A stretch of DNA of 64,000 bases from contig NC_011026.1 in assembly GCF_000020525.1 (NCBI RefSeq), forward strand, positions 186,001 through 250,000. The letters are read 5' to 3'. Source of the DNA: Chloroherpeton thalassium ATCC 35110. Its GTDB lineage: Bacteria > Bacteroidota > Chlorobiia > Chlorobiales > Chloroherpetonaceae. Of this stretch, positions 44,539-48,198 are shown in pieces. Each line of letters begins with the position of its first letter. Position 1 is the first letter of the stretch. Under the pieces are notes generated by a model. It ran no database searches. It saw nothing but the letters and a program-made list of their open reading frames with translations, and had not been told where the DNA came from. Both the position numbers and the translations under genes were made by a program.

Positions 44539-45183
44539 TTATTCCGCTGGAGCAGCGTCTTCTGATGAAGCATCATCTTCTGGCGCAACTTCTTCCGACT
44601 CCAATTCGGATTCGTCAGTGACTTTATTCTCATCAACTGATTTTCCTGCAAATCCGATTAACGTTGGATTGTAAATCTTGTATGCTTTTTCAGCGATGGT
44701 GTAACGCTTTTCAGCAACGGCCAATTCAGATTTCAAATCATCAAGCTTTTTAGCTTCAACATCGTGATTCTTTTTTGCTTCGCCCAAATTTGCTTGCGCT
44801 TCTTTTTGATCTCTCAGATATTCAGGATCTTTTCCTGGTTGGTTATAAAGCTCAGCGACTTTTTCAGCTTTATCTAAGCGCTCTTTAAACAAACGAATAC
44901 GAGAATTTTGCTTTGCCATAAGATTTTTTAAGCGCTTATACTCTTTTTCCGTATCTAACCATTTGTTTAAAGCTTTCAAGCTATCTTCAGAAATAAGCTT
45001 GCGTGGTTCTACACTGGTAGCTGATTGCTTTTGCTGTTCAGGTTTTTCTTTCTTGGTAGCGCGACGCTGCATTTCCTTTACAGCTACAGCTTCGTTCGCT
45101 GCTTCATAAGCGTTAGCAGCAAAAGCAGATTGCACATAAAATAAACCCACCAATAGTAATATAAGAGATCTCATAGTTTTCAA
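44539..45183 (-). CDS. Secreted coiled-coil protein
   Basis: A 214-residue protein. A signal peptide (MKTMRSLILLLVGLFYVQSAFA) precedes a helical, charged middle (about residues 40-165) that could form coiled coils, and a very acidic tail rich in Glu, Asp and Ala. Not recognised as a family. It probably acts in the periplasm. Monocistronic between lysA and bchY; bchY itself is on the same strand but separated by about 140 bp. Confidence 0.68.
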   Translation of the reverse strand: MKTMRSLILLLVGLFYVQSAFAANAYEAANEAVAVKEMQRRATKKEKPEQQKQSATSVEPRKLISEDSLKALNKWLDTEKEYKRLKNLMAKQNSRIRLFKERLDKAEKVAELYNQPGKDPEYLRDQKEAQANLGEAKKNHDVEAKKLDDLKSELAVAEKRYTIAEKAYKIYNPTLIGFAGKSVDENKVTDESELESEEVAPEDDASSEDAAPAE

Positions 45184-45321: not shown

Positions 45322-46641
45322 TTATTGAAAGAAAGCTTGCATCTTTTCATAAATATTTTTCCTTTTCAGCAATCCATTAATTAGCGTTAAAACAGTTGCT
45401 GCGCCTTGCGCAAAATATAATGGTCGCGACGACATAATATTGGTGTAATAAACTGCTGGAATACCCATTTCTTTCACGTAACTATCCAGCGAAGTCGTTC
45501 CAATCACCAAATCTGGTTTGTGCTCAAGAACAGCTCGCCGATCTTCTTCTAAGAATTTCCGATAACGAACATCTGTCCCCAGCATCTTTAAAAGCTTATC
45601 ATCTTCTTCACCAAGCGGCGTTTGCTTAATCGATGTGGAAGCGTATGGCACAGTTAAACCAGCCTCCAACAACAGCCGAACTAATGGAAACTCATTGCCT
45701 TCATACCCAGCAACAATAACCGATCCTTCAACTTTATGCTGCTGCATAACGGCTTTAATTTTATCTTTTTCTTGCTGCGCCACCAGTTCAACTTGCGCCG
45801 GGTTGAGCGCCAAAACCTCACCAATATCCTTGATCCATTTGTAAGTTGAATTTGCGCCGACTGGATTTCCCGTGATAATTGGGACGCCTTTTTCCTGGAA
45901 AAAGGCCGCCGTCTGCTCATAAAATGGATGCAGAATCGCACATGCCCCTACGCTGCCGGCTTCTTTATAATCATCTAAACTTTGAGAAGGCAAGGTAAAA
46001 ACCGCTTCAACACCGAGTTGCTGAAGCAATGCCCCGATTGCCATTGCATCAAGCGGAAAGATTTCACCAACAATGAGAAGGGTTTTTTTCCGCTTAACGG
46101 AAAAATCAGCAAAGCGAGAAAGCAAGGCCAACACGGCAACGTCTTTGGCCTCTGGATGAGAACGCAATTGGTACGCAGGTAACTTTACAGGAAAAATTTC
46201 TACGTCACCAATTTTTTTCGGTAAGAGCTCTGCAGCGAATCCAGCTGTCTCTGCAACGCACAAACTCACAACAGGAATAACACGAACCGATTTATCCTCA
46301 GCGATTTTTTCTAACGCTTTTTTAATATCCGTATCGAGCGAACCGACTGAAAGTGTTTTATCAGTAATTTCAACAGATAGCACCGATTTGCGAGCTGCAT
46401 AAAATTGAGAGACAAAAGTCAATCCATACAAACAGCCTTTGTCAGTCACTAAACAGACCTGAGCGCCATTGATTCTGGCAAGAACCCGTAGCCCACCAAA
46501 ACCGGGACACATGGTTTGAGGATGTAAATTTACCTTTTCACTTTGTCCTTGCCCTTTTCCTCGGGTTTTGCTTAACTCATTAAAAAGGCTTTCAAAATTT
46601 GATTCTGATTGCAAGTTTGTTTTGTTTTTTTCCTCGCTCAT
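45322..46641 (-). CDS. bchY: Chlorophyllide a reductase subunit Y
   Basis: About 439 residues, nitrogenase-like. It shows HPQTMCPGFGGLRVLARI, TDKGCLYGLTFVSQFYAARKSV and VVSLCVAETAGF: the three cysteines (45, 70, 128 from the ATG at 46641) have spacings of 25 and 83, the same as the recalled cluster ligands of Rhodobacter BchY. With BchZ and the ATPase BchX it reduces ring B of chlorophyllide to a bacteriochlorin, so this organism makes bacteriochlorophyll a. BchX and BchZ are not in the window. A TTG at 46683 would add 14 residues, but the ATG fits better. It follows the SPOR gene by 49 bp on the same strand. Confidence 0.92.
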   Translation of the reverse strand: MSEEKNKTNLQSESNFESLFNELSKTRGKGQGQSEKVNLHPQTMCPGFGGLRVLARINGAQVCLVTDKGCLYGLTFVSQFYAARKSVLSVEITDKTLSVGSLDTDIKKALEKIAEDKSVRVIPVVSLCVAETAGFAAELLPKKIGDVEIFPVKLPAYQLRSHPEAKDVAVLALLSRFADFSVKRKKTLLIVGEIFPLDAMAIGALLQQLGVEAVFTLPSQSLDDYKEAGSVGACAILHPFYEQTAAFFQEKGVPIITGNPVGANSTYKWIKDIGEVLALNPAQVELVAQQEKDKIKAVMQQHKVEGSVIVAGYEGNEFPLVRLLLEAGLTVPYASTSIKQTPLGEEDDKLLKMLGTDVRYRKFLEEDRRAVLEHKPDLVIGTTSLDSYVKEMGIPAVYYTNIMSSRPLYFAQGAATVLTLINGLLKRKNIYEKMQAFFQ

Positions 46642-46690
46642 TAGCTTGATTTCAAAATATATGTTACGACGAACAGGAAACAATTAGAAA

Positions 46691-47344
46691 TTACTTCACT
46701 TTTACAATAAACGCATCGCCAGGCAACACAGACGCGGCCTCTTCTTTCGTTCGTAGCGCTTCAGCACGAGAGCTAAAACTGCCAACCAAAACACGATTGA
46801 AAGTTTTTCCACGAACCTCCGTTTCCCAAACCGCCGCGGCAATCCCTTTTTTGGCATACGTTTCCACCAACGCATCGGCTTTGCTTTTATCGGGAAAAGA
46901 CCCGACCGAAATGGCGTAACCGCCATCGGATAGATTCATTTTCTTAGTCAACTGAGGAGGAACAAACCATGGCGTTTCACGCGAAGCCGCTGCGCGCGAA
47001 CTGATTGCGCTCGAGGCTTTGCTTGGAGCCGGTGAAGATTCGATCTCACGATTTGGCTGAGCATAACGGCGCTCTGGTTGCGGCGTCTCCGCGGCACTTT
47101 GCTCAGGGATCATTTCTTTTTCTTGCGATTCCTCGACTGCTTGAGCCGCTTCGCTGGCTTTTTCTTCAACTGGCGCTTCAACGGTATGCGCTGCTGAAAC
47201 ATCAGGCATCTTTTCCTCAGATTCGCCGCCGCCGCTAAAAATAAAGAAACCGCCAATCGCTAAAAGTAATACAACCGCTACCGCACCGATGATGATATAT
47301 AAATTTTTACTGCTACTACTGCCTTCTTCATACAGCCAACTCAA
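46691..47344 (-). CDS. SPOR-domain protein (possibly the 3' part of a split HU-CCDC81/SPOR gene)
   Basis: About 217 residues from a TTG at 47344. A transmembrane segment (about residues 15-37, LYIIIGAVAVVLLLAIGGFFIF) is followed by an acidic, Pro/Ser-rich linker and a C-terminal SPOR domain (about residues 145-217: GGYAISVGSFPDKSKADALVETYAKKGIAAAVWETEVRGKTFNRVLVGSFSSRAEALRTKEEAA). SPOR binds denuded peptidoglycan at the division septum. Its frame is open upstream of the TTG, without any start codon, and reads TPLQKDDSEPSLSSGEGKGQ before it, so it may be part of the upstream HU gene; see the findings. The fused form in Bacteroidetes is recalled, not checked. Confidence 0.85.
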   Translation of the reverse strand: MSWLYEEGSSSSKNLYIIIGAVAVVLLLAIGGFFIFSGGGESEEKMPDVSAAHTVEAPVEEKASEAAQAVEESQEKEMIPEQSAAETPQPERRYAQPNREIESSPAPSKASSAISSRAAASRETPWFVPPQLTKKMNLSDGGYAISVGSFPDKSKADALVETYAKKGIAAAVWETEVRGKTFNRVLVGSFSSRAEALRTKEEAASVLPGDAFIVKVK

Positions 47345-48198
47345 ATCATGCTCTTGGCCTTTGCCTTCACCGGATGAAAGCGATGGTTCACTATCATCTT
47401 TTTGTAAAGGTGTTTTGGGGATTCCATAGTTGTTTTTTGATTTTGTTTTGATGATTCTAAAGGTTTCTTTGCCGCTTTCTCTTCAGATGCAGTTCCTGTT
47501 GCTTTAGATGATATATCAATCAATTCCCCAAATTCTTCACGTTCTGACTCATCGTCTTTTGACGATGCGGTGCTGGCGGTTTCGTACGAAAGCACATCGG
47601 CTTGGCCTTTTTGCTCAGCCTGCAATCTCTCGGCTGAGGCATCTGGATTCATCGTCTTTTCAAATTCCGCAGCTGCATTTTCTTGACTTTTCTTTGAGGA
47701 AACAGGCGCGGGTTTTAGATGTGCATATTGTTTGTTCAAAAGCTCAAGTAGCCAATCAGATTCTTCAAATGTAACGGTGCCGTCTTCAGCTTTTTTCAAC
47801 GCGCCGATATTGCCTATTTCAACCTCACCTTTAACCTCCAGAACTTTTTGAAGCGTGGCTGCAACCCCTTTGGAAAACTTTAAAGCGTGCACCTCATTCA
47901 AATTGAACTGGCTTAATGCGATGTCATAAACAAAATCCTCTGGATTTTCCGAACTGGAACTGGTTAGCTGCACACTTTGCCTTGGGGGAAATAAAAATAA
48001 ATTGCCGTCTTTTTCTTGACGCGGTTCGGCTGGATGGTACACTCGTTTCAGAACGCCAACACCTGCAAAAGAAACGGTGCCTTGCAATAGCAATTCTTCA
48101 AGTGATTGTTCAAAAAGTTTGTCAATGTATTGTACAACTTTATCCTTATCGAATCCTAACGAAGGTGCGAGCACCTTGGCAAAAATTTCATTATTCAT
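47341..48198 (-). CDS. HU-like CCDC81-type protein (N-terminal half)
   Basis: A 285-residue protein. The first about 160 residues form two HU-related domains (LAPSLGFDKDKVVQYIDKLFEQSLEELLLQGTVSFAGVGVLKR and LNEVHALKFSKGVAATLQKVLEVKGEVEIGNIGALKK), as in the bacterial HU-CCDC81 proteins that usually come with a SPOR domain. A Ser/Glu-rich linker follows, and the last about 30 residues (KHLYKKMIVNHRFHPVKAKAKSMI) look unlike the rest and may be a shifted-frame read. The gene ends four bases into the SPOR gene. It lies in an apparent operon with bchY. Confidence 0.8.
   Translation of the reverse strand: MNNEIFAKVLAPSLGFDKDKVVQYIDKLFEQSLEELLLQGTVSFAGVGVLKRVYHPAEPRQEKDGNLFLFPPRQSVQLTSSSSENPEDFVYDIALSQFNLNEVHALKFSKGVAATLQKVLEVKGEVEIGNIGALKKAEDGTVTFEESDWLLELLNKQYAHLKPAPVSSKKSQENAAAEFEKTMNPDASAERLQAEQKGQADVLSYETASTASSKDDESEREEFGELIDISSKATGTASEEKAAKKPLESSKQNQKTTMESPKHLYKKMIVNHRFHPVKAKAKSMI
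47398..47438 (-). other. Possible -1 frameshift site joining the HU and SPOR frames
   Basis: On the minus strand AAAAAAC (47432-47438) and CAAAAAG (47398-47404) lie in the overlap of the open HU frame and the open -1 (SPOR) frame. The second resembles the A-AAA-AAG slip motif of dnaX, with C in the first place. A shift here would join both into about 500 residues. A sequencing indel is an equal explanation. Confidence 0.4.

What the first reader, a model, noticed from the sequence alone, without database searches (positions are those of the whole stretch)
47341..47470. HU-CCDC81 and SPOR genes may be one protein joined by a -1 frameshift
In the sequence the HU gene ends at 47341 and the SPOR gene can start only at a TTG (47344), overlapping by 4 bp. 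The SPOR frame is open upstream of that TTG without any start codon, and reads a sensible acidic linker, TPLQKDDSEPSL and on, while the last about 30 residues of the HU frame look unnatural (KKMIVNHRFHPVKAKAKSMI). Two slip sites lie in the double-open zone: AAAAAAC (47432-47438) and CAAAAAG (47398-47404). HU-CCDC81 and SPOR are fused in one protein in Bacteroidetes in my recollection. A shift of -1 here would give about 500 residues. It might be programmed, or a simple indel.
Basis: partly seen in the sequence, partly recalled or inferred. Interest (0 to 1): 0.72.

Follow-up and report, generated by a model that had tools for sequence, protein, structure and literature searches.

The report
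One HU–SPOR gene split by frameshift
In one green sulfur bacterium, a gene that is a single reading frame in all of its relatives is cut in two by a one-base change of reading frame; most likely a local mutation or sequencing error, or, less likely but with a plausible signal present, a place where ribosomes are made to slip.

Summary
The window's contig has the length of the Chloroherpeton thalassium chromosome. The HU-CCDC81 frame (48198-47341, minus strand) and the SPOR frame (open 47482-46691) are one ancestral gene. Of 98 Chlorobia genomes, 83 have the HU part: in 81 it lies in one open frame of at least 333 aa, one is cut by a contig end, and only this genome is split. The nearest relative (432 aa, fused) shares DLSWLYE, which spans the TTG 'start', so the -1 frame is coding upstream of it. 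Homology puts the frame change at about 47449-47410. Still, no relative conserves the split, and a lineage-specific indel or base-call error is the most economical cause (about 0.6). Programmed -1 frameshifting is about 0.3. Resequencing and a reporter assay would decide.

The parts
47341..48198 (-). HU-CCDC81 half, ATG to TGA, 285 aa; the residues after the frame-change zone are out of frame
   Evidence: ORF; PF18175 HU-CCDC81_bac_2 and PF00216 matches
46691..47482 (-). SPOR half: -1 frame, open from 47482; the only near start codon is TTG 47344
   Evidence: PF05036 SPOR E=5.8e-14
47341..47482 (-). double-open zone in which the frame must change
47410..47449 (-). homology-favoured place of the frame change
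   Evidence: switch-point scoring against the nearest relative, 16 matrix/gap settings
   Evidence: sequence, in-phase motif count; listed as frameshift-prone in E. coli (PMC4066793)
47364..47410 (-). 17-bp interrupted hairpin starting 2 nt after the heptamer
   Evidence: -18.4 kcal/mol, z -4.9 to -5.4 by dinucleotide shuffles; 1.5% of GC-matched synonymous recodings fold as well
47432..47438 (-).
47398..47404 (-).
47327..47347 (-). DLSWLYE motif in the -1 frame, identical in the nearest relative and spanning the TTG 'start'
   Evidence: alignment
47237..47302 (-). transmembrane helix LYIIIGAVAVVLLLAIGGFFIF
   Evidence: read from the translation; aligned with the relatives' hydrophobic stretch

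Best explanation
This is one gene for a cytosolic double HU (CCDC81-type) module, a linker, one transmembrane helix, a second linker and a periplasmic SPOR domain; it presumably ties a DNA-binding-like module to septal peptidoglycan (inferred from the families). In the C. thalassium record the first linker carries a net one-base displacement of frame, near 47449-47410. The most economical cause is a lineage-specific indel or a base-call error in this run-rich stretch (AAAAAAC, CCCCAAAA, CAAAAAG). Shown: one ancestral gene, split only here, and the transition zone. Inferred: that the cause is an indel or error and not recoding. If the indel is real, the cell makes a soluble HU protein and at best a reinitiated SPOR protein from TTG 47344.
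For: 81 other Chlorobia genomes keep the HU part in one frame of 333-597 aa; the single other short one is cut by its contig end. Nearest relative fused, 432 aa, 45% identical, with a similar following gene. The split is a singleton, the class that Antonov et al. expect to be mostly sequencing errors when homology supports the fusion (PMC3711429). The stretch is rich in homopolymer runs. No SD-like stimulator of the list precedes the heptamer, and the hairpin spacing is short.
Against: Both halves are otherwise intact, with no second lesion. Frame-broken conserved genes are rare in 1.24 Mb of this genome. A frameshift-prone in-phase heptamer sits in the homology-favoured zone with an unusually stable hairpin just after it, which an indel does not predict.
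Confidence: 0.6

Rival explanations
1. Programmed -1 ribosomal frameshifting. The ribosome decodes CCA AAA at C_CCA_AAA (47419-47413), is held by the 17-bp hairpin that starts 2 nt later, both tRNAs re-pair one base back (CCC, AAA), and a fraction of ribosomes makes the 502-aa HU-TM-SPOR protein while the rest stop at 47341 and make a soluble HU protein.
For: In-phase heptamer of the frameshift-prone set inside the homology-favoured zone. Hairpin -18.4 kcal/mol, z about -5; 2 of 176 frameshift-prone heptamers in this genome's genes have as stable a fold and 1 of 176 has z at or below -4. If the stem is taken from its second pair (C47409) it starts at the 4th base after the motif with a C-G pair and -15.3 kcal/mol, which meets the search rules of PMC4066793. 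The nearest relative, in one frame, has no comparable hairpin there. dnaX of the same genome is also two ORFs in -1 register.
Against: One genome only; no conservation. The hairpin starts 2 nt after the motif in the MFE fold where 5-8 nt is usual. Without GC matching, 8% of synonymous recodings fold as well. Several site types were examined after the fact. Lineage-specific recoding in a non-mobile gene is rare (inference).
Confidence: 0.3
2. Functional gene fission: a real indel split the gene, and the SPOR half is made as a separate membrane protein by termination-reinitiation at the TTGA overlap.
For: TTGA overlap at 47344-47341. The SPOR half would keep its TM helix and SPOR domain.
Against: The TTG is the Leu codon of the conserved DLSWLYE motif, so it was not evolved as a start. 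The overlap is expected for most TGA stops. The upstream SD score (-3.7) is no better than random in-gene positions, 64% of which are weaker.
Confidence: 0.08
3. Transcriptional slippage at the A-runs gives a mixture of mRNAs, some in the fused frame.
For: A6, A4 and A5 runs in the zone. dnaX of this genome has A9, for which transcriptional slippage is the proposal (PMC3711429).
Against: A6 is short: runs of A6 or longer occur 1.6 times per kb of gene here, and the cited paper considers runs of more than 7 A.
Confidence: 0.02

Closest known systems
Fused HU-type / SPOR proteins of Chlorobia, e.g. Chloroherpetonaceae MAG JANQGG010000023 (L059 3001-4299)
   Same: Same order of HU module, linker, TM, linker, SPOR; 45% identity; similar following gene
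   Different: One continuous frame in the relatives; two frames here
dnaX of C. thalassium (two-ORF, A9; Antonov et al. 2013, PMC3711429)
   Same: Same genome, non-mobile gene, two overlapping ORFs needing -1
   Different: dnaX has a run of nine A and belongs to a cluster of several genera; this gene has at most A6 and is split in one genome only
Bacterial -1 programmed frameshifting at X_XXZ_ZZN with a hairpin (E. coli dnaX, IS3-family elements; PMC4066793)
   Same: In-phase motif C_CCA_AAA, downstream hairpin, -1 ORF continuing a homologous protein
   Different: Short spacer, no SD-like element, no conservation, no measured product

Membership tests
HU-CCDC81 / SPOR fusion proteins | HU-type N-terminal module | tested here: met
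   PF18175 37.0 bits over cut-off 35 and PF00216 23.4 bits over 22.4 for the HU domain alone; homologous to 83 Chlorobia genomes' matches
HU-CCDC81 / SPOR fusion proteins | C-terminal SPOR domain after a TM helix | tested here: met
   PF05036 E=5.8e-14; TM stretch read from the sequence
HU-CCDC81 / SPOR fusion proteins | Both in one open reading frame | tested here: not met
   Frames differ by -1 in this genome; met in the relatives
Programmed -1 ribosomal frameshifting | In-phase slippery motif in the overlap | tested here: met
   C_CCA_AAA 47419-47413
Programmed -1 ribosomal frameshifting | Downstream structure at suitable spacing, or upstream SD-like element | tested here: inconclusive
   Strong hairpin but 2-nt spacer in the MFE fold, 4th base if the first pair opens; none of the SD-like words upstream (sequence)
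Programmed -1 ribosomal frameshifting | Conservation of site and frame arrangement in relatives | tested here: not met
   No other genome of the class is split; only one member of the same family was available
Programmed -1 ribosomal frameshifting | Frameshift product observed | not testable with these tools
   Needs mass spectrometry or a reporter assay

The most novel reading that the evidence does not exclude
A non-mobile HU-SPOR protein whose membrane and peptidoglycan-binding half is added by programmed -1 frameshifting at C_CCA_AAA with a hairpin, so that one mRNA yields a soluble HU protein and a septum-tethered one in a set ratio; the recoding arose in the Chloroherpeton lineage.
Probability: 0.3. 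Interest if true: 0.65.

Novelty: new member of a known kind. Interest (0 to 1): 0.4.

Why it matters
If programmed, it would be a rare lineage-specific -1 recoding in a non-mobile gene, setting how much of an HU module is tied to the cell wall, in a genome whose dnaX already seems to need recoding. If an indel or error, it is an annotation correction: two database proteins should be read as one, and the family is fused throughout Chlorobia.

Tried and rejected
Codon-usage likelihood to place the frame change was uninformative in this biased linker. The first genome-contig scan with the HU part found nothing; the second found only the known nearest relative. The hairpin DNA is not a repeated element: the best other match in the genome is 20 nt. 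Folding downstream of C_AAA_AAG gives no unusual structure (z -0.07 and -0.66). The same linker in the nearest relative has no comparable hairpin. No Rfam family fits. The hairpin energy alone is not extreme: 13% of all 70-nt gene windows, 1.2% when GC-matched. Literature searches for HU-CCDC81 with SPOR, or SPOR domain with frameshift in Chlorobi, gave nothing relevant.

Full report
What was checked. The window is bases 186001-250000 of a single 3,293,456-base contig. That is the length printed for Chloroherpeton thalassium CP001100, a JGI genome (PMC2613243). On the minus strand the HU-CCDC81 frame runs 48198-47341, and the SPOR frame is open from 47482 to 46691 with TTG 47344 as the only start near the HU stop.

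It is one gene. A search of 98 genomes of the class with an HU alignment gave 83 matches. This genome has a 289-residue open frame. One match is cut by the end of its contig (G090; the contig ends 20 bases past the match). The other 81 have open frames of 333-597 residues. In the 29 relatives fetched, many frames match both the HU and the SPOR ends of the joined query, and their C-terminal ends look SPOR-like. The nearest relative, a Chloroherpetonaceae MAG (L059), has a 432-residue fused protein, 45% identical, followed by a gene resembling the bchY that follows here. Its DLSWLYE motif is identical here and spans the TTG, and similarity continues upstream in the -1 frame (SEP..SS..E). So the -1 frame is coding upstream of the only possible start. 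The HU search finds a single copy in this genome.

Where the frame changes. Scoring every possible switch point against the relative's protein puts the optimum at 47419-47410 with default BLOSUM62, and always within 47449-47410 over 16 matrix and gap settings. This rests on one relative and a weakly conserved linker, so it is moderate evidence.

The possible signal. In the HU frame AAAAAAC is split c|AA AAA AC|a and cannot work as a tandem slip. In the favoured zone lies C_CCA_AAA (47419-47413), a strict in-phase X_XXZ_ZZN heptamer. In E. coli C_CC.A_AA.A belongs to 18 underrepresented motifs with more than 0.10% shifting without stimulator (PMC4066793). Two bases after it begins a 17-bp hairpin, -18.4 kcal/mol, z about -5 by dinucleotide shuffling. 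Compared with real genes of this genome, heptamers of the frameshift-prone set occur 0.67 per kb; 2 of 176 are followed by a fold this stable, and 1 of 176 has z at or below -4. Compared with synonymous recoding of the -1-frame peptide, the fold is reached in 8% of trials, or 1.5% with GC matched. Against the signal: a spacer of 2 nt in the MFE fold where 5-8 is usual, no SD-like element from the list, and no conservation.

Base rates. Scanning 1.24 Mb of this genome (991 well-scoring ORFs) for overlapping ORFs without a nearby ATG or GTG start gave 20 pairs. On reading them, nearly all are ordinary neighbours with a later start. The exceptions are this gene, dnaX with nine A (also reported in PMC3711429), a broken TPR-repeat gene, and a doubtful channel/cNMP pair. 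Frame-broken conserved genes are therefore rare here. Lineage-specific recoding of ordinary genes is rarer still (inference), and Antonov et al. expect homology-supported singletons to be sequencing errors.

Verdict. The one-gene reading is close to certain. For the cause I give 0.6 to an indel or base-call error, 0.3 to programmed frameshifting at C_CCA_AAA, 0.08 to functional fission by coupling, and 0.02 to transcriptional slippage. These numbers are judgements: a low prior for lineage-specific recoding, raised for the joint presence of heptamer and hairpin, and discounted because several site types were examined after the fact. The proposed role (HU module tied to septal peptidoglycan by SPOR) follows from family knowledge and was not tested.

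Noticed in passing
L040 4893-6742 (genome 164893-166742), A9 at L040 6101-6109: dnaX is two overlapping ORFs in -1 register joined at a run of nine A; this agrees with the two-ORF dnaX that Antonov et al. 2013 report for C. thalassium.
   Followed up: partly
L082 8459-7027 (minus strand): A TPR-repeat gene looks frame-broken in its N-terminal repeats.
   Followed up: no
L093 14353-16160 (plus strand): A TrkA-type channel ORF is followed in the -1 frame by a cNMP-binding-like ORF without an ATG or GTG near the junction; possibly a second split gene, or a neighbour with a TTG start.
   Followed up: no
window 45322-46683 and 44539-45183: bchY (TIGR02015, E=1e-155) and a following coiled-coil-like gene lie downstream of the HU-SPOR gene, with similar genes in the same order in the nearest relative.
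   Followed up: partly
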